NCBI GenBank assembly: GCA_025716815.1
Contig: JAIXMN010000004.1
Coordinates: forward strand, 930,001-994,000
Origin: Dichotomocladium elegans
Lineage: Eukaryota; Mucoromycota; Mucoromycetes; Mucorales; Lichtheimiaceae
Direction of reading: 5' to 3'
DNA: 64,000 nt
Shown here one piece after another: positions 1 through 58,822 of the stretch; position 1 is the stretch's first letter; the number at the start of each line of letters is the position of its first letter. The translations under genes were made by a program, and so were the position numbers. The notes beneath the pieces were generated by a model. It saw nothing but the letters and a program-made list of their open reading frames with translations. It had not been told where the DNA came from and searched no databases.

Positions 1-514
1 CCGACGCTGGTTATCAAATGGAGTAATAATATTCAGAGAAATTATTCATTATGTACCTACACTTCCTGAACGTATGGATAAGGATGACAGCAGTGTCGTA
101 TTTTGTTGTGTTGTAAGAGACTGAGAGAGTACGAAAAGAAGTACAATCTTCCTACACTACACGAGTGCCGGATATATATCGGATTATTCTTGAGATGGTC
201 TCTTGGAATTACTTGTTGGAATTGTTTGGTATTTCATTGTTGATTTCAGACCGCCCTCACGTCGGTATGTAAAATCTCATAAAAGAACCCAGTGGGAAAA
301 AGAAAATGACTGTGGAGATGGATCATTGCTGACACTATAAATAGTGATGCTCAAGCAAACTGTACCTTTCCATTATCCACATACAAAACTATAGCCCATA
401 CAGCCTACAGAAAATAACACAGCACCACATTTACGGTAGAAAGGTAATACGGCCGCTTTCATACTCGGCTCTGCGATACTAAGAAATAATATACCCTAGG
501 TCTTCACCCACCAA
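1..514. other. Left-edge non-coding stretch upstream of the Fanzor gene
   Basis: I see no convincing coding region here. If the Fanzor element follows the pattern of the other two elements in the window, its left terminus should carry GTCGCA-type subterminal motifs. I could not find a clear copy, so the left end is either eroded or lies outside the window. Confidence 0.4.
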
Positions 515-2711
515 ATGGCCCAACCCCACCGCCCCGTCATTCCCGAAGGCATGCGCACTGGCCACAGCATTGACCGCACTGGCCGTATAATTGGGGTGAA
601 ATCGTCCATACGGGGCATCGGCTGGCGACAGCAGTACCGTGAACGTCTGTATCAGTTGATTGACCTTGTCCACAACACCACAACACAGGCGTATGCGTTC
701 GCCAAATATATTTTCATCAACGAGGCAGCGCGCGATCCAACTTTTAACATCCAGGAAAACATCACGGGGTAGTTCTTTTCAGAAGTTCGGCTCTCCATGG
801 TTAACAAAGCCGAATGCCGAACCCAAGGTGAAACTGCCCGCATCCGAGAACTAATTAATCGCCACAAGGATGAGTATCTTCGGATATCCGGATACGACAG
901 GCCTGCGTTCCCTTATCCCCAGCAATGTCCTTCTTACGAAGGCACCAAGATTTATACTGCTTACGTGCATAATGCCCACATGCGGCTCGGGCAACACCTT
1001 CGGCGTGTCATCAATGTCATCCTGAATCTTCGTCAGCGAAAAGCCGACCGCAAGCGAGAGTTAATCGCACAGGGCCTAAGCCCCGATCAAGTACGCCAGG
1101 ATCTTTATGAAACCATCACCCGGCATGCCACAGGATTCAAGCTAGCAATTGCCCGTCGAGGTGTTTTGAGGGAAGACATTAATGCCGAACCTGGATTTCT
1201 TCGGGAAGCATACGATATCTTACAGCCTGTCTTAGACGCTTACCCCCGAAACCACCAATTCCAACACAAGAGTATCTATTACGACGCCAAGGCCAATCCT
1301 GTTAAGCATTTCAACGCCTTCTTCCAGCTTGCACGTGTTTGTCAACAGAACGGAATACGCGGATTCAACTGTTTTCCACTTCATCGCTCGTGGTCACCAT
1401 GCTACATGGAGATCGATACGAAAATCCTTTGCTACCATATTCTGGGCTGCAAAATGGAATCCCACACAAGCAATATGGAGTACTGGAGACGGGTTGTAAA
1501 CCTGAAGTCAAGAGCTTTCAATCCCCAAGAATCCGAGCTGCTCCAATTCCGTGGGACTATTCACACAGACGGCGTCGGTGTTACTGTGTTCAAGAAGACA
1601 AATGGCCTTCAATCGGTTTTCGGACAGAGATTTGGCATCCAGAGCGAAGATATCGAGTACGTCGCCCCACAGATAGTCCGGAACGAAGACTATAGAGGGC
1701 AATGGGTCACCATTGATCCTGGCAGAAGAGACCTGTTGTATTGCGTTCATGAGAACTCGTCACCCGACAACCACCAGACCTTCCGATATACAAAGCAGCT
1801 TCAAGATCATACACGGAAGACCAAACGGTACCGCAGACTCCGAGAACGACTCAAGTTAGAGCGTCCCGAAGTCGCGTTGGCTGAGCAGAATCTATCTCAA
1901 TTTCAAAGTCATACGCTTTCCGTGCCCAACTACGACGACGGATACCTCGCCGCCAAGAACCGGGTCTCTGTAGTTCTCAAGTCTTTCTACGCGACAAACA
2001 CTACCAACCACCCGAACCCGCAATCTCTTTTTCGAAAACTTCGCCTATCAGCGTTTTACAAGAAGCAGCAAGCAGATGAAAAGCTTCTCGAATCTTTGAA
2101 TGCGAAGTTTGGCAGTAGGTCCGTTTTCGTGATGGGAAATTGGTCTGCGCCGCATACCAGATATCATGAGCCTATCCGTGGTGTCGGCTTCCGGCGGCTG
2201 TTGAAGAAGAACAATTGCAATATTTATTTGATCGACGAGTACAAGACAAGCAGGTGCTGCCCTGTATGTAGCAATGAAAGCCTTGCTACCTTTAAAATGG
2301 TTCCTAATCCACGCCCCTATCGACGACCCGACAATCCGCTCACGATCTGCCATGGCCTGCTACGGTATGAAGGACGGGCATGCTGTGTTATATTTCCAAA
2401 AGATTTTAATATTTTGATGTTTCAATAGATGCACAAATCAAAACTGTACAGCAGGCATGGCAGAGGGTGTTCGTCAACCAAGGTTATGGAACCGGGATCT
2501 GGCGGCGGCTCTCAACATGCATCATATCCTCCGGGGTCTTCGGGAAGATGGTATCATCCCAGCAAAGTTTCAGAGAAGAAATGCTGCACAAGCGTCCGCA
2601 GCTGGTGGAAGGCCACACTCACCTGAACCAGAGCAGCGCAGCGTGAGACCACGACGGGCAAGGCCAGGAAGGCCACGAGGTGCACGCTCTGGCGGGTCGA
2701 GACGACCGTAA
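515..2711 (+). CDS. Fanzor (eukaryotic TnpB-like RNA-guided nuclease), one in-frame stop, one intron
   Basis: Exons are 515-2364 and 2429-2711; the 64-nt GT-AG intron (2365-2428) joins CG to A, giving an Arg codon. The joined frame has about 710 codons. Visible hallmarks are RuvC-I (TIDPGRRDLLYC, catalytic Asp), then GNWSAPHTRYHEPIRG, then IDEYKTS with the Glu likely used as the rearranged RuvC-II acid, and a zinc finger CPVC plus CTNQNC whose second half is completed only by splicing. RuvC-III is WNRDLAAALNM. The C-terminal tail is rich in Arg and Pro. TAG at 770-772 interrupts the frame where the second copy (49.2 kb) reads QEKFFSE. Met797 would give a 616-residue product keeping all catalytic parts. 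A bypass intron 691-782 does not restore phase. Family knowledge: Fanzors are RNA-guided DNA endonucleases carried by eukaryotic transposons. Activity is inferred. Confidence 0.85.
2365..2428 (+). other. Intron of the Fanzor gene
   Basis: The donor is GTATGAAG and the acceptor TTTCAATAG. Removing it turns LLRYEG-stop into LLRCTNQNC and joins the zinc finger to RuvC-III. The second Fanzor copy has an intron at the same codon (50933-50999). Confidence 0.85.
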
Positions 2712-2730
2712 GCCCGACCAAGAATTTTCC

Positions 2731-2750
2731 GCGTCAGTTATCGCTGACGC
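2731..2750 (+). ncRNA. Candidate Fanzor guide-RNA scaffold hairpin
   Basis: GCGTCAG-TTATCG-CTGACGC forms a perfect 7-bp stem with a 6-nt loop just after the Fanzor stop codon. It is followed by GCCC-TTCG-GGGC (about 2768-2780) and a CCTTCC...GGAGG pairing. The second Fanzor element has a hairpin at the equivalent place with the same loop and a different but paired stem (51130-51149). TnpB and Fanzor guide RNAs are known to arise from the 3' end of the element; the RNA role here is inferred. Confidence 0.55.
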
Positions 2751-2810
2751 ACCCAGGATAACCACAGCCCTTCGGGGCAAGCCCCCTTCCTTTGGAGGGA
2801 CGGTGTGTTG

Positions 2811-2990
2811 TAAGTTAACGGGATTGGAGAAGGCATAGTGTTTTCTGCTGACTAACAGGGTTTAATCCCTGGATGCGAAATCTTTTTACCTATTGATACG
2901 ACAAATTTATATAATTCTATGCGACATTTTTCTTGTATTTTGCACGTCATTATTTTATCTTGTTTACGACACTTATTTTTGAAAATAAAG
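2811..2990 (+). repeat. Right terminal region of Fanzor element 1 (CGACA-repeat end)
   Basis: This AT-rich tail carries CGACA/CGTCA motifs about every 25-30 nt. It ends GAAAATAAAG followed by TA (2991-2992), identical to the right end of the Tc1/mariner element at 57843-57854. GTAAGTT and TTTTCTGCTGACTAAC are also shared with 57665 onward. The end lies about 40 nt from the hexokinase stop codon, so the element sits in the hexokinase 3' flank. Confidence 0.75.
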
Positions 2991-3029: not shown

Positions 3030-4680
3030 CTAAGCAGTAGTAGCCATGTTATCACGATTTTCCATGGCAGCAGCCACGCATGCTGTCAGAGCAGCACCAA
3101 CACCACTGCCATCCTTGGCAAGACCTAATCGGATCGTTTTGCGCACGTCCTTGTACTCGGGAAGGAGGATCTGGAGAGCATCATAGATCCGGTCTTCGAA
3201 AGAAGGATAGAATTCATAGAGTGAGCCATCAATGCCCACATCAGTACCCTCGTCCTCCTCGACACCGCAATGGTTGACCACAGCTGCAATAGAAGCAGCA
3301 GCCAAATGTGCGGCACGCGTGCCAACCAGCTCGCACACGCGCTTGATCATTCGGCGTTCAACAATGGTGACATTGCTCAAGTTAAAGTTGAGATCAAGGA
3401 CATTCTTGATTCCACTCAAATCGCTGGATCCATCCTTTTCAATTTCGGACATAAATGCTGTTTCAAAAGCATAGTGGGCGGAGAGCTCCTTGCACCAAGA
3501 CTGTTCGTTGAATTTGCCGTTGGAAGGGCCGAATAGGATCTCCCGATCCATCATGTCCGCGAGAACGTTTCGAGCAATCTCGCCGAGATACATGCCTGAA
3601 ATCATCTTTTCAAAGATCTGGCTGTTTGGATTGATGGACTGGCGGTCGACCTTGTTGTCAAATTGAGTGACCGGAAGAACGAGACGCTCGTTATCGAAAG
3701 CACCGCACTCCATGTTGATAATCATCTCCGAGCTGGTTGTCTCACCCCCTTTCCACTTGCCAATCTTGCTCATCTGCTCAATGTATGCACCATTAGACCC
3801 GGTACCAAGAATCATGCCCACCGTTGTCTTGGGGTTTCTGTAAGCGTGGGAGAGAAGGGTTCCGACAGTGTCATTGACAAGGGCCGAGACTTTGACAGGC
3901 AAATTCTTACGGAGTAGGGCATCCTGAAGGAGCATAACAGGATCCTTGCCAACAGCGCCAGAGCAGTTGAAGCCTTTGGTCCATGATTTGAGGATACCTC
4001 GGTTTATCTAATTACTAGGGTTAGGACCGAGCGGAGCTGATTGGCTCCGGGGAAGTTACTTGCTTTAGATTGAAGAACAGGGAAGGAGAACGTATAGCCA
4101 AGATGCAATGGCTCCTCAGAGTTCGAAAGACCTTCCTGTGTCAAAAAATCGTCGACGCACTCCGCAATGTAGTCTAGGCAAGGATAATTCAGCCATCAAG
4201 CATTTATGAACGGCATGGCCAAAGCAATCTTGTCTAAAGACGTACCACAAAGCTGGCGCATGGGCCCGGTCTTGAGCTCTTCTGTAACTCGGGACTTGGA
4301 GTACTTTGTCTTGTACTTCCCTTCGCCTTCCAATGTCACCAGAACAACCCGGAGATTGGTTCCTCCCAAGTCAAGGGCAAGGAAATTCCCCTTTTCCTGG
4401 CCTAGCAAACTAGGATATTTAGTGAAGACGTCACAGTTATTTTAAGCAACTTGGATATACCTGTGAGACGGCCCTCCACGTAGGATGGAATCATGGCCAC
4501 TGTTTGACCCTCATTGTTCAAGCCCTTGGTCATCTCTGACATGAAATGATCTCTTATTTTCTTGAGATAATCGGGCGGGATGGAGAACTGCCGAGTGATC
4601 TTTTCGATGTAGGCTTCCTGTTCTGGGGTTCCACCAATACCACATGTCAGGGGAACGGCCTCGGAGATGCGACGAACCAT
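3030..4680 (-). CDS. Hexokinase
   Basis: Phosphorylates glucose and other hexoses with ATP, the first step of glycolysis, in the cytosol. Exons (minus): 4680-4461, 4401-4246, 4173-4060, 3997-3030, with introns of 59, 72 and 62 nt. The start is the Met of MVRRISEAVPL. Motifs in order: FLALDLGGTNLRVV (phosphate binding), GYTFSFPVLQ, SWTKGFNCSGAVGKDPV (sugar-binding region), LVNDTVGTLLSHAY (catalytic Asp), GMILGTGSNGAYIE and a glycine-rich C-terminus GLAKDGSGVGAAL. The exon 3-4 join reads KASILKSW, one residue shorter than I expect from relatives, so that splice site is the least certain. Total length about 485 residues is normal for a fungal hexokinase. Confidence 0.93.
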
Positions 4681-46683: not shown

Positions 46684-48309
46684 TTGTCACCACAGTCTCC
46701 GCTGCTAACCGAAACTACCGGGCTTATCGTAGCTTTGATAGGAAGATCAAGAAGGGAGAGAGAGAGAGAGAGAGAAGGCAACGAAGAGTTGTAATCAACT
46801 TGTTCACTGAGTATACTTGTAGTAGTGTAGTTTGTATCTGAATATGATAGGTAAGGAGCAAAAACAGCAACAAAACATTAGAAGAGGGAATCCACCCCTC
46901 GTCCGTGCTTTAACACCATATCCGGGTGGGGGTTTATGGTTGTCGGCTGCTGCTGCGGTATTGCAGAAAACGAAAATATGTCAAAATCTCATCATATCGA
47001 TACCGGGTAGCTTTACTAAATGCTGTTGCTGGCCTTGTTCTGAATAATATTCGGCTGAAACTGCCATTATCATTACCTATGGTCGGACCGAGCATCAAGA
47101 AATGTTAATGCAACGTAAAAAGCGCCTCATGTCACTTTTAGTTCTGCGCTTAATCTTATCACTCAAAGTTTTTGTTATCATCTCGTATCTTAAAAGGGGA
47201 AAGGGGAAGGCGAACAAACGAATAGGAGAATCTGAAAATCTATTTCGACATGGACGGCTTTATAACAAAGACTGATACTCTGCTCGCTAATAAGTAAACG
47301 GTCCACGCTCAATGGGTCTATTATATTATGTACTCTGATGAATGGAGATATGTCTTACGCTATGACAAATGTCAGTAGAGTGGATGGATGCATATATATA
47401 TAGCATTGCTGACCTGCAAAAGCCTCTCGAAAGAAACCCTCGATATCGAGTAATGAATGATCAATAAAGTTTTATCGCGGATTCTTGATGAGTTCAATAG
47501 ACGTGATCAGCAAATCCCCCCCCCCAGGAGGTGGCCGGTTCACAATAAAAGGTCCTCACCCCAGTAAAACACACGTGATTTACTCCTTAATAATCTCCCC
47601 TGGTCGCTCTCTGAAAAATAAAGTAGTGTACAGGGCTTTTTTAGATACGGGAACTGATCGTCAATCGCACCCAATAATCTGCAATGCTCTGAATCAACTC
47701 TGTTTAGAGTCTAAGTAGAGTTAACAATATCAGTGTTACTTACCGTCTGGGTCCAAGCCAGATATCAGGTGATAATAAATCTCCATCGGTACGGCCTAGT
47801 TGGCCGATATGTATGCGGCGCATTATTCCGGTCATATCAGTATAGAATACAAGGGCGTTCATCAAAGATATGCTGCATGATGCGAGATAGTAGATATCCT
47901 TGTGTTGATTGTCCAAATCATTCGCTCTGAGCCATTGACAAGTTCCAACATGACTTTGTTTTGATATGCATAATTATAGGCATTGGCTTGATACCACGTG
48001 TCATCAGAGATCAGACATAGAGAAAGAACACATGACGCTTGGTTGACCACAGGCACCAGTTGAGCTTATAAGCCGTGTGCAAAGAGGCCCGGATGCAGCA
48101 TACTATGACGATAATGCTTGGAATCAAATCACTAAGCGCTGTGCAAGAAGACGGGACATTATCATAGAGGCTGACGTGACCGTTGTTTAGGAGGACTGTT
48201 CATAAGAAGCGAGTATACTGCTTAGAGCGAAAAAGAGTTGGAGGTAAGCGCCCTGGAGGTTGCTGCTCGGTGGTAATGCTTATGATGGTGTCGAGCCCTT
48301 GCATTTCTG
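46684..48309. other. 1.6-kb spacer, no gene recognised
   Basis: AT-rich with only short ORFs and a C10 run near 47516-47525. It separates the membrane-protein pair from the second Fanzor element. I looked on the minus strand for the missing NOT1 3' half and did not recognise it. Confidence 0.4.
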
Positions 48310-49189
48310 GAAGTCGCAGAATCACAAAAATTGAAGTCGAGTGTCGCCGAGAATCTTTACGTGTGGTGACAAAGCAAATGTCGCATAAATTGTATAAAGT
48401 TGTCGTATCAATAGGTAAAGAGATTTCGGATCGATGGATTGATACCCATTAGTCAGCTGGAAACACCAACTCTTTTAACTTAAACTCAAGGGATGGAAGG
48501 AGCGGAAGGGACTCCAGGAGCCCCTCCCTTCCATGACTCATCCATTACGGGCACAATTGGGCAATACTTCAAGGATAGTTGGTGTTAGAGTACAATAAAA
48601 CAAGTTAGTGTGGTGGTGATCATACCGAATGAGAACACACAGTAGATACGACGGCATGTGGATGACTTCTTTGTGGTGATCAATCATGCATGAACTCCAG
48701 CTCACCCATGGGATATGCGTAGAGTAGAGATAAAGAGGTAAGAATATGGTTATATTCGAATATAGTACAGATAGACTGTAAGAAAACTCAAAGGCTGACG
48801 ACACTTCCTCGGTACCTTTCAGTTCAATTCTAAGTTTGTGATTGGCCTGATGAAAGCAGGCGGTGCTCGGATTGATCCACCATCTCAGTGTATACGTTGG
48901 GATCTCATCAATGCATAAAACATTTGCACACTTCCTTTACTTTCACAACCCCATGCAGCTCTTCCAGCTCACAGAATCCATAAACTCGGCAAAAAGTCCC
49001 TTCCGGAAGGACCTAGCCCGACGTGAAAGGTTAAAGGGGGGTGAGCCCAACAATACAAGATCAGAAATCGAACGGCAAGGCACAAATATCATATTTGGTC
49101 CTAGATACTCAGATTGCATTACAGTCCGCCACAGAGGAAGACAAGAGCAGGCTGTCGATCCTGTCAGGACGAGGGGTTGTAAACCCTAC

Positions 49190-51110
49190 TCCACCCAATC
49201 TTCGGCGATCTGACCGCATGTTGGCACTCAATACGTTCATATGTGGCATCTGCTGGATCCCTCGCTACCACCAACCGCTGATGGACTTTGTGTCTGTTGT
49301 CCAGAGGACAACAACACACGCTTACAGCTTCGTCAAGTCCAATTTCCTTCGAACGAGGAAGCATGAGCCTAACTTCGACATCCAGCCGTTCACGCAAGAG
49401 AAGTTCTTTTCTGAGATGTGGCTGTCCATGCTGGACAAGGGGATTTGCCCCACCGATGGGGTTGTCGGTGACTGCCGGGCACTAGTCGTCAAGCTTTTGG
49501 ACGAGTACCTCGAGGCCACCCCCAATACCGACGGCCGATATTCAGGAACCCTCAGCAATACTCTACCTACGGAGCCAAGAAAATGTTTGTTGCAGTATGT
49601 AACAATAGCTACATGAGGTTTGGTCAGCACCTTCGACGCGCGGTCAACACTGTCCTGAATCTTCGGGCGCGGAAGGCGGCGATGATACGAGAGCTGAACA
49701 CACTCGACTGGACCGAGGAGCAAACACACCAGGACATCTAAGACACAATCACTCGCGATTAACCGCCAAGATGCCCAGAGGGAAGACATCGCCGTAGAGT
49801 CAGCGTTCCTTAGAGAAGCATATGTCTAGATCCGGCCGGATTTTGATACATGCCATGCAGAGCACCGGCTCGAGCAAGAATGCATTTATTGCGACGCACT
49901 CCTCCAACCATTTCCATGCTTTTGTGGAGCTTGTGCATGTCTTTCAATGTTTTCCTCTTCGCCGATCCTGCACCTCTTCCCATATGCAGATAGACACGAC
50001 GGTCCTCGTGCAACGCATCTTACGGAAGGTCAAGGCACCACGTGAGTCAGAGGTTGACTCTTGGAGAGATGCTTCTGACCTAAACTCCTCTGCGTTCCGA
50101 CACCAAAGAAGACGGTACGATTAAATTTCAGCGCACGATTCACACTGACGGAGTGGGCGTTACCGTTTTCAAGAGGTCGAACGGCCAACGACCATCGTAT
50201 GGAGCGAAGTTCAGAGGAGTTGAAGACGAGAAAAATTGTGCCAGCACTCTGACACCGCAGGAGCACCAGGACTTCTCCAATAGATGTGCCTCCATAGACC
50301 CTGGGAGGAGGGACGTTCTCTTCTGTTATTTACGAGAACTCCAGGGCAGAGCGCGGTGTCCATGAGAAGTTCCGAAATTTGTAAGACTAAAAAGACCGAT
50401 GGATTGCTGGAGCAGCTCAAGGATACGAATCATGAAGTCGCTCATGCCGAAGAACACATTGTTGCTGTTCAAGCATGTGCCTTGGACAGTACTGAATTAA
50501 ACCGCTTCCTGCTTACTCATTCCCAAGTGCTACCCATTCTCGAGAACTTCTACGCGAAAGTTGCCACCCAACAGGTTGACCCTAACATCTATTCCTCGAG
50601 CTCCGTCAGTGAGCATATTTCAACAAGCAACGAGCGGACAGAAGGCTTGTATATGACCTAAAGAGCAAGTTCGAGGCGGATTCTGTGTTATTGATAGGTA
50701 ATTGGTCCGCCCCGAACACGAGATATCACGAGCTAATCCGTGGTGTTGTCTTCCGGCACCTTCTCAAGCGTGGCGAGCACCGTTTCGACCTGTAATCGAT
50801 CGACGAGTTCAAGATCGGCAAATGTTGACGTACATGCGGGAACGAGAGCATTTCTACGTTCAGGATGGTGATGAATCCAGCGCCTTATCGATAAACCGAG
50901 AACCCCAACGCCATTTGCCATGGCCTGCGACGGTATGGAGATTTCTTAGGGTGGAAAGGCTTAAAATAGTAAAATCCAACATTTTCCTACTCTCTGTAGA
51001 TACACAAATCAAACCTGTACAGCAGGCATCGAAGAGGGCACCCCACATCGATTGTGGAACCGAAATATGGCAGCATGCCTGAACCGCACCATATTCTCAA
51101 GCACTTGTTG
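49190..51110 (+). pseudogene. Fanzor pseudogene
   Basis: Collinear with the Fanzor at 515-2711 but broken by several stops and frameshifts. Matching blocks: VQRTTTHAYSFVKSNFL, QEKFFSEMWLSMLD, YMRFGQHLRRAVNTVLNLRA, FLREAYV, IHTDGVGVTVFKRSNG, SIDPGRRDVLFC (RuvC-I Asp kept) and GNWSAPNTRYHELIRG. The zinc finger is damaged (TGA in place of the second residue after GKC). RuvC-III reads LWNRNMAACLN, so the catalytic Asp is Asn. The intron (50933-50999) is retained at the same codon. This copy cannot encode an active nuclease. Confidence 0.82.
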
Positions 51111-51129
51111 GAGCTGTCAGGAATCTACT

Positions 51130-51149
51130 ATGCTGGTTATCGCCGGCAT
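51130..51149 (+). ncRNA. Candidate guide-RNA scaffold hairpin of Fanzor element 2
   Basis: ATGCTGG-TTATCG-CCGGCAT has the same 6-nt loop as the hairpin at 2731-2750. Five of seven stem pairs are replaced but still paired, one as a G-T wobble, and an eighth pair (T51129-A51150) extends it. Its position, just after the RuvC-III coding part, is equivalent. Confidence 0.5.
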
Positions 51150-51559
51150 ATATCTTGCTAGCGTAGGGGTAAGTGAAAGGGTAAGAGGGTAGAATGGCTG
51201 TTTTTTTTGGCTGCCTAGCGAATATCAATCTTTCTTTACCCATCTATGCGACAACATTTTGTATTTTAATCCGACATTTATTTTATCTTTTTATGCGTCA
51301 AAATTTTCTTCTCTTTACAAAGTTATTTAACCAAAAATTCCTATGATTTCAGCCGAACTCGCTCTTTTAATCTTCAAAGTCACTAGCATTTATCTACTGA
51401 GGTTGACTGTACATGTACACGGTGATTTGAGGATCAAATACATGGAGCAATACTTGCCGATGATATTAGGGTTCATCGAGGATTCCGTTATTAAAAACAA
51501 CTCAGAAGCAATCTTGTTTGGTCCAGGGGATTTAACACATATCTCTAAATCACCTGCGG

Positions 51560-54500
51560 TAGTCTTATTCCTGACGATGCCCTTGATGAGGTTTGAAGGC
51601 GTCTATTTTGTAATAATGAGCTAGCTTGGATTTCTATGTAAAGATCAGCAAATGCGCAAGTTGTTAAATATCCCTCAATAGCGTACCGTTAACCTCAATG
51701 GATATAGTCTTGCATAGAACCTCGATTTCGAATTTAAGATTGAGTTTAAGATTGGCATGCCGATATAGTTCAGCGAGCAGTTTCACAATCGCCATAAGCC
51801 ATGGATTAGGAGGCTTGAAAACCACGCTTCTGTTGCACTGCTCCAACACCTTGCAGACGAACGGAATTACAACAATAAGACGATCATTATCGAAACCCTC
51901 AAGTAGTAGCTCCTATACAAAACCATTAGCGTCGCTGCCTTTTTACAGTCTCGGATACATACCTTGAAATCAAGGTGCTTGTGTTTTATTGGCCTGCTGC
52001 GAGCAAGCGTTAGTCCTCCCAACCAAGATCCTAGATTCTTTAGCAAGTTTCTCTCGGAAGATGAAGTTACCGTCTTCTCCGAGTTTAGAAGGGCTTGGAT
52101 ATTGATAAATGTCTCACGTAATACATGTTGATACAGTAACCTGCTATCAAGCAAATCCAGTAATAGCAAATAAAGCTCATGGTAATTCGGCTCGAGGCTG
52201 ACTCGCTTCTGCACAAGGTAGTTGCTGAACCATCGGTATGCGGATTTGTTGAGGGATATTGCGAGTTCCGCAAATTTCTCATCGATATTGTGAGACGCCA
52301 CATTATTGATGATAAACATAATCCTGTCTTGTATGGACTCAGCGGGAGATTCATAAACCTCTCTGTCGTCTGTCGCAGGTTGGGGTATATGGATCGCAGT
52401 AAAAGAAAACTGCGACACAGCGTTGTCGTTATTCAGAGGTACAGGAAGCGTTGATTGTTGAAATAATGTGGGTGCGTCTTGCAGTTGAAGTTGTGGTGTT
52501 CGTACGATGGCAATAAGATAGCGCATTAAATCACCATTCGATTGCCGCATATGAGGGATCTGGAGTATGTTGAGACAAAATTGCGGCCATTCGGCCAGAC
52601 GCGACTGGAAACGAAGGAGCGTTTGATGGCCAAAGTTGAACATCTTTGATCCAACTGGGTGGCGCACTGCATCAAGTATACATTGGAGAGCAACGCCAAG
52701 CGACATAGATGGCATGAGATGATGCTGGATCAATGATCCAAAAAGAGCGCTTGTGATAGATAGTTCTTTTTCTGGATACTTGGGGAAGAATTGATATTCG
52801 TCAAGGAGGATATGAATCATGCAAGCATAGACGTCTTGATCACGAGGATTTTTAGATTGCTTGAGCTTGGTAAGCAGCTCGGTCATTTCATCGATTGACA
52901 TTTCACCACTGTATATCTTTTCATAATACGAGTTCGCCTCTCTGTCCACATCTGCACTGAATGGCAATTCGACTTCTGTCACCTTATTCACTGCATTCCA
53001 CGAAGCGTTGCTAAGCATTGGGTTTGTTTGTATACATATGCTGTGGACGATGTTAAGGCGTTCTGTGTTCTCTGGGCCCATTTGACTAAGCAGAATGAAA
53101 CAGTGGTCAGGTAGTTGACTAAAAACGGGTAAAGCACAGTTTTAAGTTTACCTTTCAGAAAGAACCCTCAAGAAGGTGTTTGCCGTTTCAGGCAGCAGAG
53201 TATCATCGCTTTGGCGTGAATTCTTATCTTGATAAGTCCTCTCAGTCACCATCTTCTGGCTTAAAAACTCCAAACACGCATGTATAAAGGTATCCTTGTG
53301 TTTCGCGATCTGTTCCCGCAGCCATTTATCCAGATTGAGAAGGTCTTTCTGGGATGCAAGCGCTGCAAGATCAATCGTAAAGAAGAAAGGTTGGTGACCA
53401 AGGACAGTCGATAAGATCTGAAATGCGATCGTTGGTTATTTTCCTCATTCATTAAACATACACACACCTTCAATTCGTGCAATATGTCCAGGATACGTGA
53501 CAGCGAAGCACTGTCGGTTTCATACATCTCCAGTATACTTTTGAAGAAGAGGTTTGGATTGAGAAGCCACAGTTTGGTTAAAACCAGAGAATTGCTTGGA
53601 TGTCCCGTCAGAAAGAAGAGCAGCAGCCGACTAAGTATCTCCTTCTGATACAATAACAGGGGATTCTAAGGAACGGGTTAGTATATCCGTTCGGAAGTAG
53701 TGTACCTATAATATATTACCTGTGCCTGAAGGAAGCCAAGAAAAACTAACTCGGGAGATATACTGACCATCATCTCAATAAAGACCTTCACTTCAAGTGA
53801 CACTGCAGTGTCAGAAAGTCCCAAAACGCATTCAATCAAGTCCAAGGAATTAAGTTGGGATTTGTAGAGCTCTAAAGCCGTATTGCGCACATTCAAACTA
53901 GAATTCGAGAAGTCCTCCAACTCAATGACCTTGTAGTCAGAAGATTCAGCAGTACTGAGGATGTCTGTGGGTGCTCTTGCCATTTGGTATAAGGCGCTAA
54001 GCTGGCCTTTTAAATTACGCCATTTCCCAAAAAACATATTAATAGGGAAAGGCCCTGCTCCCTACAACGATGCTTGCATGAGTTATGTCGCACACTTACT
54101 CTGATCTGCTAATATTCACCCTTGGACTTTGCCTCCATGCTCGGACGAGAATCTCTAAGCCTTTTACATCGTACAAAAAGAAATGGGGATAATCGAAATT
54201 CTCGATCACCCTCATCCAATCAATATCTGGTACCTAAGGAAACTTTGGGGTCAGGTACCATCCCATTCAATCCTTCTTGCTCTCGTGGACTGCTGGATAC
54301 CTTCTCTTGGATGACGGTGACGAAATTTTCTACGTTCCAATTCGACTCAACAGGAGATCCATTGCCCACTCCACTCATATTGGTGTATGTGCGAGCCATA
54401 AATCCAAGCGCGACAGCGACATCCTTTTCCATCGGCCAGACGTCCCCAAATAGCTTCCGTAGTGAGTCGAGTGAGCTGCAGCATTCATACCCAGCTTCTA

Positions 54501-55538
54501 GCATCCGTTTACTTAGAAGGCTTTCTCTCCATTCCTCGTCATTCACATCGTTTCTATATAATCCATTAATGCATATCTGAGAGAACCATCCTCGCATTTT
54601 TTAAAGATGCTTGGCACACATACTTGGCTCTCGCTCGTCTTTGGATGTCTTGTGCCATGTTAATGATATTTTCATCGGTACAATGTTCAGGAATCAAGTG
54701 GGCGAACATCTGGATATCTTCAAGACTGAAGAACTCAAAGCCGGACGAGGTACATTTGTTGATTGCATCGACGCACCAGAAAAGTAATATTCCTGGAAGG
54801 GTGCCAAGGTTCGAAAGCTGATCGATGGTATTCTTAAATTTGATAGACGCTATTGTTTTGGCTACACAGGAGTAAAAATGAGCGCGAATCCATCCCTGTG
54901 GTTCTAACCGGGATTACCTTGCTCTGCAACAGCATCACTTGCAGTCAAATACAGCAGAGATGACAATACAAATTGCTCAAAACTGTCCAACCGGAGCTGC
55001 GTGAAAAACGAGTCGAGTTCTATAAGCGACGCTGCCGAGTCGGATTTACAGAATTGTGAAAAAGTTTCAGCAAATGTCACGAATGCTTTCATCGAGTTAT
55101 TGTCACTGGTGTTTTTAGAAGTAGCCGTTCCAATCATTTCCCTGAGCTGCAAAAGCTGGGGACACCTGTCCATTGGGTCCTGAGGTTGCTTGTAAAGCCC
55201 TGTAAGAAGAAAACGGATGAGGTGTTGCCGGATATCTTCGCCGTAGGTCTCGACAAGCTATATAGAAGCATAACACAGAATTAGTGTTGTCTATCCTCAT
55301 GATAGCAATAAGCGCATTTCGATAACCGAGACGCAAAATATAGTGATATTACACCCACCCCTTTCATCTCCGGAGCAATCTTTGCATAGTTCTCTGTGGT
55401 CAGGTTAGAAGCCAGCAATCCGATTTGTGCCTTGACGATCCGGGCTAAGGTAGAAAGATGGGCTTTTGATGCAGGATTCTGAAGTGGTGAGATTGACGAG
55501 GGAACTGCACAGGTGAGATTATCTGGATCACTGCTCAT
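51560..55538 (-). CDS. NOT1 (CCR4-NOT scaffold), 3' half missing
   Basis: The multi-exon minus-strand gene starts at [15 protein letters not shown] (55538; exon 1 55538-55359). Blocks in order: [100 protein letters not shown] (MIF4G-like CAF1-binding domain), [40 protein letters not shown]; and [18 protein letters not shown]. It reads on to about [15 protein letters not shown] near 51600 and then degenerates. The CAF40-binding and C-terminal NOT-module regions expected next (roughly 900 residues) are not seen. A Fanzor element end lies about 200 bp further. NOT1 is essential in yeasts, so an intact copy elsewhere is likely. Confidence 0.8.
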
Positions 55539-56048
55539 AGTTGTTGATCACAGGGCATGACGACGTGTACGATGACACGAATCGAATGCAATTGAATAGG
55601 GCTCACTACTGAAAGAAAGCACGAGGGAGATCCAGTTGGTTCGCGACAAACTGGAGATTGACGATGCACGATTATCTCAGAGAAGATAGAACAACTAGTA
55701 TAGTCGTATGCCGAGTTTTAATGATCTTGGATGAACAGACAAACAATGAATGTGGAAGGAGAAGCGTAAGAGCTGGGCAGGTTACTACACCGGGAATACT
55801 GTAAAGTTGGTCACGCATCCCGCCAAATCGAACGCGCTGTATCGGTGATGAATTCGTAGCAAATAGATCCGAATCCGAGGTTTACGCCAATGTGCTTTGT
55901 CAGTTTGCTTCTCGTTGCAGGTATTGTTTACAGTAATGTTCCCTAATATGCCAGCTATTTCCTCTATTTCCATAACTCCTGCGTCCGTAGTAACAATCTA
56001 CCAAAGCGGTTTAAGTAGCGGAAACTATTGACTGCCATCTGAAACATA
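55539..56048. other. NOT1 promoter region
   Basis: About 500 nt between the NOT1 start and the left end of the Tc1/mariner element. No coding region seen. Confidence 0.4.
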
Positions 56049-56213
56049 CACTATTTTCCAAAAACCACCCCAGTTCTGAAGTCGCAAGATCACAAAAATA
56101 AAACCAGAAATCTTTACGCATACACGGAAAGACGTCGCACAAAAGAAGCTTCCATCCTTTTAAAAATTCATCCTTACGATTCTTTCGCTTTTATACACTT
56201 TTACATTCTGAAA

Positions 56214-57345
56214 TGAGCAATTTATCTTTTTGCAAGGTGGTCCAAGGTCATGTCGGTTATGAGCGCGACTATCCTGAACCTATGGACTATGATGTTGATG
56301 AAAATGTACTTTCTGCAATCCATTTGTTCTCGCACTGAATATATGCGTAGTATATCTTGTAGAGATAACTCTGATCTCACTACCACAGACGTTCAGATGA
56401 AAGAAGCAGTGATCAATCGCAATTACCCAGTGTACACTGACCACGACAAGGTTAGATTCTTCAAACGGACGTTTGAGAAGGTCTTGAGTGCTTCAGCTGC
56501 TAGGAATCCATGTTCGTTCAGCCCGACGATGGGCATTACAGTACGAGAAAGCCTCTGACAGCATCTTTAAGAAACCTAATGCGAGGAGTCGTTCGCGTAT
56601 TCTCAATGAAGACCATACGAGATTTATTTTAGAGTGTGTTGATGAGAATCCATCGATTGTCCTAGAACAGCTGATGGAGCAATTGCTCCAAAGATTTGAG
56701 GGTCTCAAAGTATCTAAAGCGACGCTCCATCGATTTATGAAGAAAGAATGCAACTTGTCATTGAAAATGGCTCGATTTCAGCCTGTAGATAGGAATAATT
56801 CTGTTGAAGATCCGAGAGCGTCTTGGCTGGGTGCGTAAATGGGACAGGACCAACATCGACTTTAGAAAAAATGCGTTTTTCTTGATGAGTCTGAATTCCG
56901 TATTAATATGAAACGCAGCATGGCATGGTCCAAGAAAGGGACTCCTGTAGTGTCACAATACCAAAGATAAGAGCAAAGAAAACCACAATCTTGAGAGCAA
57001 CCTCTGAATCAGGCATCAATAAATGTAGCTTGAGACTCCCGCAGCTACCAACCAAAAAGGAAGAGGACAGGTCAATCTGAAGTGGCGAGCAGAGGAACAG
57101 TAACTGGACATTATGTCAACTTCCTTAAGGCTACGATGGACGAGATGGATACGTATGAAAATATAAAGGGCCATTATTTGGTAATGGATAATCCCCCTAT
57201 CCATAAGGCCGAGGATTACTCTAAAACATCGAGTGTCGAGGATATCGATGTGCTCATCTTCCACCCTACTCGCCTGAACGCAATCCGATTGAGTTGTTTT
57301 GGTCAGTTGTCAAGAGCAAAGTAAAAGGCAATAGGTTACCATTGT
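56214..57345 (+). pseudogene. Tc1/mariner-type transposase remnant (DDE)
   Basis: An HTH-like N-terminal part (NARSRSRILNEDHTRFILEC, VSKATLHRFMKKE) leads to FLDESEFRINMKRSMAWSKKG (first Asp), YLVMDNPPIHK (second Asp) and SPERNPIELFWSVVKSKVKG (Glu). The acidic triad is visible but spread over three frames with stops (for example after VVSQYQR), so it is inactive. Confidence 0.78.
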
Positions 57346-57624
57346 TTAATTCTGCAATCTTTAATATTGCGGATCCTCTGTAGCTAACGATATAAGCCTA
57401 ACTCAAGTGCCTCGAGAGGAGAGAATACGGGCTTTGGGTGGGGTCGTGGGTTGGCTGCACCCGCACAGTGGTGCTTGTGTTTTCGTCTACTTCCTCCGTT
57501 GCTTCCCCTGATGCTTCTAGCGCTGGTGTTGTTGTTGATCCGTTGTCGTCCCTCCTCATTTCTTCCTCCAACCCTTCCGCCGTCGATGCTCAACAGCTCC
57601 GGATACTTCCTTTCCTCTTTCTTC

Positions 57625-57646
57625 TACCATTGCTACCGTAATGGTA
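57625..57646 (+). repeat. Inverted repeat near the right end of the Tc1/mariner element
   Basis: TACCATT-GCTACCGT-AATGGTA is a perfect 7-bp stem placed about 18 nt before the shared GTAAGTT block. It is comparable in position to the Fanzor hairpins but has a different loop. Confidence 0.5.
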
Positions 57647-57854
57647 CACCTGGCTACCTTAGTGGTAAGTTGAAGAGTAAGAGCAGGACTGATATTTTCT
57701 GTTGACTAACGGGTATGTCTCCGGCCTTCTTTATCCATGCGACAAATTTTACGCTTTTGTTGCGACATTGTATTATATTTTTGTGCGACATTTTATTTTA
57801 CTTTATATGTGTATAATTTTCCTCCCTTACGAAATTTATTTTGAAAATAAAGTA

Positions 57855-58822
57855 CGATATCGGGCGTGTAAGCAATCATGGTACAAGACGGCTAATCACG
57901 ATTGGATGTACTGTATCAGGTCAATTGAAAGAGCATGTTGCAGGTAATCCTACCTCTTTCTGTAAGAAACCAATCCTCGAATGAACAATTCTTGGCAGAA
58001 GAGTGCCCAAACTTCCACGTCTCTTATACTCCATTGGGCGTCGTAGATATCGGAGAAGCAGAATAAGGCCAATGCATAATTACTATTATACAGATATTTG
58101 ACAAGTACTATATTTTAAAATGGTAAGCTTGCACTGGATGAGGACTGGAGCGCTTTCTGAGCAAAGGGGAACACAATGATTGTTTCATTCAACGGACGAA
58201 CCATTTTCGTCTGTGTAACCGCGGCCATGTAACGCAAAAAGCTCAATACGAAGGCCATACCTCAAATAGTCTGATGCGCTTTAGGATGTAAACAACTAGT
58301 TACTTCGGCTTTATACTTTATTGCCTGCGGATGCAATATTTATCGAAAATTGTTAAGCTCACAACAGCGATCCGTTTGCTTATTCACTTATTAGCAACAG
58401 GCCTTGGGGAAGTAAATAACGACCATCTGCCTGTTCTTGATTACATTTTGGCTGCTCTTATTCATAGAAATGATCCTACGAGCATTATAGACAGTGTTTC
58501 TGTTACGTTCGTTCCTGAAACTGCAATATTAAAAACCGGGAGCTCAATATGATAATGTAGAAAGCGAAGCATATTGTGTGAACAAATCACACCTCCACCT
58601 TGATATGAAGACACGAGCGAAGCCGTCAGCATTTTCATGATTGTCTAATATTCCGTATTGAGCGGGAATCCGAAGGCGTTTGGGGGTTGGATCCATGTTT
58701 GTTCAAACAACGTGCTCTCCCCAATTAAACTTTGGTTGCACCAATACTGCTTTACTACAGCTGCTTTACTTCTTCTCTCACTCCCCTTCCAGTCCTTCAA
58801 AGTTAGTCCTGCTTTACGTGGT
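57855..58822. other. Spacer, no gene recognised
   Basis: AT-rich between the mariner-type element and the serine-rich protein gene. It has only short ORFs and a pyrimidine-rich stretch (58765-58795) just before the next start codon. Confidence 0.4.

What the first reader, a model, noticed from the sequence alone, without database searches (positions are those of the whole stretch)
48310..57854. Fanzor elements and a Tc1/mariner element share the same terminal sequences
Right ends at 2811-2990, 51171-51335 and 57665-57852 align by eye (GTAAGT, TTTTCTGNTGACTAAC, spaced CGACA motifs; two end GAAAATAAAG-TA). Left ends at 48310-48420 and 56078-56145 share GAAGTCGCA, ATCACAAAAAT and ATCTTTACG. This suggests that Fanzor genes here are mobilised in trans by a mariner-type transposase, with repeated CGACA/GTCGC as possible transposase-binding sites. 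Fanzor capture by Mariner elements has been reported in general; a family sharing subterminal repeats with its partner in one 10-kb region is a clean case.
Basis: seen in the sequence. Interest (0 to 1): 0.82.

Follow-up and report, generated by a model that had tools for sequence, protein, structure and literature searches.

The report
Fanzor and mariner share guide-RNA-like ends
In this fungal genome, jumping genes that carry the RNA-guided cutter Fanzor are built on a mariner transposon, and their right end contains a conserved RNA hairpin that looks like Fanzor's guide-RNA scaffold and is also found on mariner copies without Fanzor, which suggests that one Fanzor could be guided by many elements.

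Summary
The listed ends align above every shuffle and recur genome-wide. Fanzor elements (~3.9 kb when complete) read as mariner deletion derivatives: mariner left end, the start of its transposase gene, Fanzor, mariner-type right end. TA flanks both sides in 30 of 41 copies with both ends called. An intact mariner (475-aa DDE_3 transposase) with the same ends holds a Fanzor on its opposite strand.

The main addition is a 7-bp hairpin near the right end. Fanzor group B and mariner ends become similar just after the Fanzor stop, where it lies. It shows strong compensatory change (52 double-changed cells against 16.9 shuffled) and fits stem-loop 1 of known Fanzor omega-RNAs. Of 40 mariner-type ends, 26 keep at least 6 of 7 pairs. 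So a mariner transposase probably moves these elements, and Fanzor may be guided in trans. Mariner-Fanzor composites and Fanzor-less "ghost" scaffolds are published separately; ghost scaffolds on transposase-bearing elements with Fanzor ends are the new part.

Unproven but open: the right end also looks like a spliceosomal intron (GTAAGT, TGACTAAC, AG-poor up to AAAG|TA). No RNA data were available.

The parts
1..2990 (+). Fanzor A element; its left part lies outside the window and is disrupted by an inverted mariner piece; right end closes with AAAG, then TA at 2991-2992
   Evidence: 97% identical to copy L009 over 2672 aligned bases; left part L086
515..2711 (+). Fanzor A gene copy (frame from 515, in-frame TAG at 770-772; predicted intron 2365-2428; second exon 2429-2711)
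   Evidence: predicted spliced protein of paralogue L009 (709 aa) matches PpFz1 9cf0 at E 1.1e-129
2731..2750 (+). 7-bp hairpin, candidate omega-RNA stem-loop 1 (GCGTCAG / TTATCG / CTGACGC)
   Evidence: R1 model hit 2725-2782, 20.1 bits, E 0.028, not in training set; covariation
2810..2990 (+). right end: GTAAGT 2810-2815, TTTTCTGCTGACTAAC 2841-2856, CGACA-type repeats, terminal GAAAATAAAG
48302..48470 (+). decayed left end of element W2 fused to an inverted right-end fragment (48376-48466)
49041..51120 (+). decayed Fanzor gene of element W2
   Evidence: tblastn pieces; translation
51130..51149 (+). 7-bp hairpin of W2 (ATGCTGG / TTATCG / CCGGCAT)
   Evidence: R1 hit 51124-51174, 51.5 bits (W2 is in the training set)
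51169..51335 (+). decayed right end of W2
56049..57852 (+). mariner element W3, flanked by TA (56047-56048 and 57853-57854), preceded by CA
56197..57390 (+). broken DDE transposase gene of W3; no Fanzor match in the element
57626..57645 (+). 7-bp hairpin of W3 (ACCATTG / CTACCG / TAATGGT)
   Evidence: R1 hit 57620-57670, 67 bits (W3 is in the training set)
57665..57852 (+). right end of W3: GTAAGT 57665-57670, TTTTCTGTTGACTAAC 57695-57710, then AG-free up to the terminal AAAG

Best explanation
A mariner (Tc1-like) transposon family in this fungus is a platform for Fanzor. Its transposase inserts elements at YA-TA-TR sites. At least one element carries transposase plus Fanzor, many are deletion derivatives with Fanzor and only the start of the transposase gene, and many show no Fanzor. 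They share the right end: a 7-bp hairpin, a linker ending in GTAAGT, a TGACTAAC motif, CGACA repeats and a terminal AAAG|TA. Shown: common ends, TA duplication, mariner remnants in Fanzor elements, the covarying hairpin, and its presence on Fanzor-less copies. Inferred: the hairpin is stem-loop 1 of the omega-RNA; transcription through the right end adds the flanking DNA as guide; and Fanzor protein can use scaffolds from other members, cutting the empty site (TAM ATA) after excision so that repair copies the element back.
For: Shared ends. Anatomy. Intact mariner with the same ends, 99.5% identical over 2429 bases to a second copy with other flanks; DDE_3 at E 1.8e-30. TA/TA in 30 of 41. A mariner inside a Fanzor gene whose empty site, with one TA, keeps the paralogue's length next to the site. 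Hairpin covariation. Fanzor B against five mariner ends: the 110 nt from TTTTCCG on score 40-66, above all 300 shuffles in 5 of 5, the 150 nt upstream no better than shuffles in 5 of 5; element W2 above all shuffles in 4 of 5. Genome counts 151, 89 and 28 with 0 in reversed-pattern controls. Of 40 mariner-type ends 16 have all 7 pairs and 26 at least 6. Of 100 listed mariner-type loci, none has a scored Fanzor match upstream and 19 a scored transposase match. Two B loci share a Fanzor-deleting junction and keep the scaffold. In the C57 composite only the mariner right end matches the scaffold model at E up to 1. The three Fz1 omega-RNAs with solved structures have a 7-bp SL1 (PMC11423790, section 5 read). 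PpFz1 TAM ATN fits the YATA left flank.
Against: No RNA, binding or cleavage data. Fanzor A has little direct similarity to mariner in the hairpin segment (scores 13-22; 1 to 218 of 300 shuffles reach them): it is tied in through Fanzor B (34, 0 of 300), the terminal part of the right end and a weak model hit (E 0.028). The decayed A-type copy L048 gave no model hit. Eight of 40 mariner-type ends have 4 or fewer pairs or have lost a strand. Hairpin to right end is 203-246 nt in four elements, longer than the 75-150 nt of three Fz1 omega-RNAs. Persistence on Fanzor-less copies may be common descent. Co-occurrence lists scored 80 of 775 Fanzor and 150 of 1437 transposase candidates; 28 of 89 A-type loci also lack a scored Fanzor match, and two B loci counted as lacking one carry Fanzor pieces.
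Confidence: 0.64

Rival explanations
1. Passive inheritance: Fanzor elements are mariner deletion derivatives, and the shared right-end block is merely inherited mariner sequence (end recognition, transcript end). The hairpin serves the transposon or its transcript, not Fanzor.
For: The block is part of the mariner end; transposase frames at most of the listed matches carry stops. Fanzor elements keep other inherited mariner sequence.
Against: The hairpin covaries as RNA, has the 7 bp of known Fanzor SL1, and in group B the similarity to mariner starts directly after the Fanzor stop codon, the place where SpuFz1 has its omega-RNA (PMC10432273, passage).
Confidence: 0.21
2. Spliced guide RNA: the right end is a spliceosomal intron (GTAAGT to terminal AAAG). 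Splicing removes the transposase-binding repeats and joins a scaffold of about 45 nt (B, mariner) or 85 nt (A) to TA plus flank. This refines the best explanation and does not exclude it.
For: Conserved GTAAGT and TGACTAAC. AG between the branch-like motif and the end: 0 seen against 102.9 expected in 28 Fanzor A copies, 0 against 8.0 in 3 Fanzor B, 14 against 76.5 in 23 mariner ends, 14 of 23 free of it (first 4 and last 6 nt left out). AT-rich window pieces: ratio 0.93, 0 of 58 AG-free. The CACY/AAAG termini differ just where a 3' splice site would need AG.
Against: Fanzor A has an AG directly after the motif (CTAACAG) and C57 one at the next base. The reverse complement of left ends is also AG-poor (0.40 of expectation, though 0 of 36 are AG-free), and copies are related, so three lineages carry most of the weight (P of zero AG 0.003, 0.03, 0.008 by shuffling). 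Motif to AG is 111-142 nt in five reference elements. MFE folds do not discriminate.
Confidence: 0.19
3. Fanzor elements move by another route (Fanzor itself or an unrelated transposase) and mariner ends were acquired by recombination.
For: The Fanzor A element read in full (L009) has no complete transposase.
Against: Mariner end structure, TA duplication and target preference in many copies; 95% identity of the transposase start to the intact mariner.
Confidence: 0.04
4. Chance similarity of AT-rich sequence.
For: None found.
Against: shuffles; genome-wide recurrence.
Confidence: 0.01

Closest known systems
Mariner-Fanzor1 elements PUl-1, PUl-4 and PGv-1 (Bao and Jurka 2013, PMC3627910; passages read)
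   Same: Fanzor1 inside Tc1/mariner elements; Fanzor-only elements with mariner terminal repeats and TA duplications (PUl-4).
   Different: Here Fanzor-only elements retain transposase-gene remnants, are numerous (19 copies 95-96% identical to the window's Fanzor, without a stop in the compared stretch), coexist with an intact mariner carrying Fanzor on the other strand, and share a hairpin block. The passages read mention no RNA.
Spu-1 Fanzor and ghost loci of Spizellomyces punctatus (Saito et al. 2023, PMC10432273; passages read)
   Same: Fanzor-less loci with the inverted repeats and an omega-RNA scaffold; conserved CA left of the element, TAM CATA; trans help proposed.
   Different: Those authors found no transposase flanked by the Spu-1 repeats. 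Here transposase-bearing elements share the Fanzor ends and carry the scaffold-like hairpin.
PpFz1 of Parasitella parasitica (PDB 9cf0-9cf3; Xu et al. 2024, PMC11423790; section 5 and passages read)
   Same: Best match of Fanzor A among solved structures; 7-bp SL1; TAM ATN.
   Different: Fanzor A has nothing aligned to chain residues 1002-1094 of PpFz1, where its RuvC insertion probably lies; the PpFz1 omega-RNA is 75 nt.
IStrons (TnpB transposons with a self-splicing group I intron; recalled, not read here)
   Same: Coupling of splicing and guide-RNA production at a transposon right end, if the splicing reading holds.
   Different: Here the signals are spliceosomal and only the right-end segment would be removed.

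Membership tests
Tc1/mariner transposon | DDE transposase of the DDE_3 type with N-terminal helix-turn-helix | tested here: met
   475 aa in L049 and the C57 copy; DDE_3 1.8e-30; HTH_32 3.4e-6 and HTH_Tnp_Tc3_2 3.5e-4, both below curated cut-offs
Tc1/mariner transposon | TA target-site duplication and terminal inverted repeats | tested here: met
   TA/TA in 30 of 41 copies with both ends called; nested insertion L008; CACY-ATTTT / CTTT-ATTTT repeats
Tc1/mariner transposon | The transposase acts on these ends | not testable with these tools
   needs a binding or excision assay
Fanzor1 | Homology to characterised Fz1 nucleases | tested here: met
   PpFz1 1.1e-129, SpuFz1 2.8e-52. The 709-aa protein itself gave no Pfam match; most listed homologues carry PF26935
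Fanzor1 | RNA-guided DNA cleavage | not testable with these tools
   none
Fanzor omega-RNA | 7-bp first stem-loop just downstream of the Fanzor stop, before the right end | tested here: met
   B: block directly after the in-frame stop, stem 6 nt on; A: block 13 nt after the stop; covariation; comparison with PMC11423790 section 5
Fanzor omega-RNA | Scaffold of about 75-150 nt reaching the element end | tested here: inconclusive
   203-246 nt if unspliced; about 45 or 85 nt if the proposed intron is removed
Fanzor omega-RNA | Expressed RNA with flank-derived guide | not testable with these tools
   no RNA data; Rfam has no match in the window at gathering scores
Ghost omega-RNA locus | Same ends and scaffold, no Fanzor gene | tested here: met
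   W3, L004 and L008: 7 pairs, transposase and no Fanzor inside the element; L007 has 6 pairs, L002 and L089 (hairpin in L065) 5, L088 (L064) has lost one strand. L091 and L092 keep only the Fanzor 3' end
Spliceosomal intron | 5' site, branch-like motif, AG-free stretch ending in AG | tested here: inconclusive
   AG depletion beyond the left-end control, but few independent lineages and an AG right after the motif in Fanzor A
Spliceosomal intron | Short branch-to-AG distance (recalled as typical of fungi) | tested here: not met
   111-142 nt in W1, W3, L009, L033 and C57; 64-100 nt in some copies

The most novel reading that the evidence does not exclude
The transposon right end is a spliceosomal intron that builds guide RNAs: splicing from GTAAGT to the terminal AAAG cuts out the transposase-binding repeats and joins the hairpin scaffold to TA plus host flank. 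Every family member, with or without Fanzor, would then yield a short spliced guide against its own empty site for a shared pool of Fanzor.
Probability: 0.17. Interest if true: 0.88.

Novelty: new variant of a known kind. Interest (0 to 1): 0.63.

Why it matters
What Fanzor does for its carriers is open: Saito et al. 2023 state that its biological role remains unknown, and found ghost scaffolds but no transposase with the same ends (passages read). This genome appears to supply the missing partner: transposase, Fanzor and scaffold-only elements with common ends, some with open genes and near-identical copies. It makes trans-guided restoration of a cut-and-paste transposon directly testable, and offers many natural variants of a 7-bp hairpin with different letters.

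Tried and rejected
Taking GTAAGT/TGACTAAC as transposase-binding repeats was rejected: they are not part of the CGACA series and are absent from four left ends checked. A hairpin found only by a fuzzy loop search missed several copies, so an alignment without hairpin selection was used. An ungapped identity test of where Fanzor-mariner similarity begins was dropped, because it failed its own positive control: two clearly related mariner ends gave 16 of 60, no more than the Fanzor comparisons (12-23 of 60). A gapped test with shuffles replaced it, in which the mariner control pairs pass. Folding did not decide between spliced and unspliced RNA. AG depletion is not decisive after the left-end control. 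Host identification by CNOT1 gave no close named relative.

Rows dropped before counts: alignment A1 left out L060 and L063 (left part unrelated), L064 and L068 (5' strand deleted) and L079 (one-base insertion); of 51 rows, 3 duplicates were collapsed. A2 is a chosen set of 27 copies with recognisable hairpins and left out L067; it is a model set, not an unbiased sample. The AG count used the 54 ends with both motifs found. In one search the 11 of 41 copies without TA/TA include B-type loci whose left end lies outside the fetched stretch and ends that look wrongly called.
Full report
Observation. Local scores of 50-63 (right) and 34 (left) exceed every one of 1000 dinucleotide shuffles per pair. 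The window belongs to a 39.4-Mb genome in 122 contigs. The mariner right end at 57660-57860 gives 43 matches from 40 scored candidates of 261, itself included; the region upstream of it (57400-57640) gives 41 matches from 40 scored of 281.

Anatomy. The window protein at 797-2425 has 91 matches in the genome (80 of 775 candidates scored); 19 besides the window copy are 95-96% identical over at least 540 of 543 residues without a stop. Forty loci were fetched. A complete copy such as L009 runs 3.9 kb: TATA, then YACC-ATTTTTCAAAATC...GAAGTCGCA at the left, a fragment homologous to the start of the mariner transposase gene, then Fanzor, then the right end closing in GAAAATAAAG and TA. Its predicted spliced protein (709 aa) matches PpFz1 (1.1e-129) and SpuFz1 (2.8e-52) in the PDB. 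A second Fanzor group B (46-57% identical) keeps a longer transposase fragment.

The mariner partner. Copies on C57 and C44 encode a 475-aa open transposase with DDE_3 at 1.8e-30; the last two catalytic acids are spaced DD34E by reading. The C57 element is about 6.9 kb, flanked by TA, and holds a convergent Fanzor with an open first exon (609-aa frame) and a second exon. The C44 copy has another left flank, is 99.5% identical over 2429 bases, and diverges after position 3042 of the C57 copy with no right-end motif in the stretch fetched, so it is probably truncated. Fanzor element L028 matches this mariner over 34 of 34 bases at the left end (26 of the element and 8 of flank) and over a 593-bp stretch at 95%. 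In Rhizopus microsporus a Fanzor homologue and a homologous transposase have consecutive locus tags (RMATCC62417_10189, _10190), each on a contig of 191,388 bases, so the association is probably not confined to this genome.

Target. Both ends were called in 41 copies; 30 have TA on both sides. All 30 have Y-A before the left TA (read from that listing); after the right TA 25 of 30 have T and 27 of 30 then have A or G, a near-palindromic preference as expected of the transposase. L008 is a mariner inserted in a Fanzor gene; removing it with one TA leaves a site of the paralogue's length next to the junction. The left flank YATA contains ATA, which fits the ATN TAM of PpFz1 (PMC11423790, passage) and resembles the CATA of SpuFz1 (PMC10432273, passage; a sentence in PMC11423790 gives CATA and TTAA for the two other enzymes in the opposite order).

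The hairpin. In Fanzor B the similarity to mariner ends starts directly after the in-frame stop codon. From TTTTCCG on, 110 nt score 40-66 against five mariner ends, above all 300 shuffles each, while the 150 nt before score 13-16, as shuffles do (60-206 of 300 reach them); mariner-mariner control pairs pass on both sides. The decayed W2 passes in 4 of 5. Fanzor A does not show this directly (13-22; 1 to 218 of 300 shuffles reach them), having extra sequence after its hairpin; it is linked through Fanzor B (34, 0 of 300) and through the terminal right end. The block lies 13 nt after the stop in A. The stem has 7 bp with different letters: GCGTCAG/CTGACGC (A), GTGTCGG/CCGGCAC (B), ATGCTGG/CCGGCAT (W2), GCCATTG/CAATGGY and GTGCCGG/CCGGCAC (mariner). 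Over 43 sequences (34 mariner-type, 9 Fanzor), 87.3% of cells pair (68.7% shuffled), 52 cells change on both sides (16.9 shuffled, 0 of 500), and slid controls pair at most 49%. Of 40 mariner-type ends, 16 have all 7 pairs, 10 have 6, 6 have 5, and 8 fewer or a lost strand. A covariance model trained without Fanzor A finds A at the expected place at E 0.028 in 171,570 bases; its hits in the window at E up to 1 are three, one per element, two of them in its training set. Xu et al. report that SL1 of the GtFz1, SpuFz1 and PpFz1 omega-RNAs has seven base pairs (section 5 read). I therefore read the hairpin as SL1. The RNA itself has not been seen.

Scaffold without Fanzor. Patterns with up to 3 mismatches give 151 mariner-type, 89 A-type and 28 B-type loci, with 0 for each pattern read backwards. 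Crossed with the scored protein matches: of the 100 listed mariner-type loci, 19 have a transposase match within 2.5 kb upstream and none a Fanzor match within 3 kb; of 28 B-type, 6 transposase, 7 Fanzor, none both; of 89 A-type, 61 Fanzor and no transposase. Only part of the candidates were scored, so these are lower bounds. Of 11 mariner-type loci with 1.4 kb or more upstream in hand, 8 show transposase and 1 (C57) a Fanzor within the element. Of four B-type loci fetched, L091 and L092 share one deletion junction from transposase to the Fanzor 3' end, a Fanzor-deleted form with the scaffold; L093 and L094 carry Fanzor pieces that the scored list had missed, so undercounts Fanzor. In C57 the only scaffold match at E up to 1 is at the mariner right end, on the strand opposite to Fanzor.

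Mechanism. Most likely the mariner transposase moves the members; insertion at YATATR sets a TAM-like ATA beside the left end and puts host flank behind the right end; transcripts through the right end become guides; Fanzor, made by some copies, cuts empty sites after excision and repair restores the element. The first step is well supported; guide production and trans use are inferred. Saito et al. report 134 ghost loci in Spizellomyces, found no transposase flanked by those repeats, and propose help in trans (passages).

Intron-like right end. GTAAGT and TTTTCTGNTGACTAAC are conserved across groups, and the stretch from there to the terminal AAAG is nearly free of AG: 0 against 102.9 expected (28 A copies), 0 against 8.0 (3 B), 14 against 76.5 (23 mariner, 14 of them free), leaving out the first 4 and last 6 nt. 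Fanzor A has an AG directly after the motif. Left ends read in reverse are depleted too (0.40 of expectation), but none of 36 is AG-free. Shuffle probabilities of zero AG are 0.003, 0.03 and 0.008 for one sequence of each group; these are not independent. Splicing would remove the repeats and shorten the scaffold from 203-246 nt to about 45 (B, mariner) or 85 nt (A). Folding does not decide, and 111-142 nt from branch motif to AG is long. I keep it as an open, novel reading.

Literature. Searches for Fanzor alone and with Mariner, Parasitella, splicing, MITE and Tc1/Mucoromycota, and for TnpB with splicing or non-autonomous elements listed no title or abstract reporting transposase-bearing elements with a Fanzor scaffold or spliced Fanzor guides. 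The library lacks most subscription papers, some lists were capped, and of the hits only PMC3627910, PMC10432273, PMC11423790 and PMC10711439 were opened, as passages or single sections. Yoon et al. (PMC10711439, section 27 read) predict that terminal repeats and TSD form part of Fanzor1 scaffolds, which fits TA being part of the scaffold here.

Noticed in passing
window 48376-48466: An inverted Fanzor-A-type right-end fragment is fused to the left end of element W2, possibly recombination between the GTCGCA repeats.
   Followed up: partly
L009 about 1283-1472; window about 264-268: L009 holds a short insert with CAGTGGCCGC / GCGGCCACTG ends at TA. The window copy lacks it and reads TATGTA there, which may be an excision footprint of a pogo-like MITE.
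   Followed up: no
L008 176-1684: A mariner copy is inserted inside a Fanzor reading frame, so members of the family interrupt each other.
   Followed up: yes
G000:C31:604665 (+) and 610833 (-): Two matches in 452-aa open transposase frames with identical scores, in inverted orientation about 6 kb apart.
   Followed up: no
L049 349-1773: The transposase is up to 83% identical to a Rhizomucor pusillus protein, while Fanzor A homologues reach 49% and CNOT1 matches 59%: a weak hint of horizontal movement of the mariner.
   Followed up: no
L091 1091-1190: A Fanzor-deleted copy has a right end lacking the CGACA repeats but keeping GTAAGT, GTGACTAA and AAAG|TA, about 54 nt in all, the size of a normal short intron.
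   Followed up: no
window 3030-3935 (-) and 51867-53081 (-): Ordinary host genes beside the elements: hexokinase and CNOT1.
   Followed up: no
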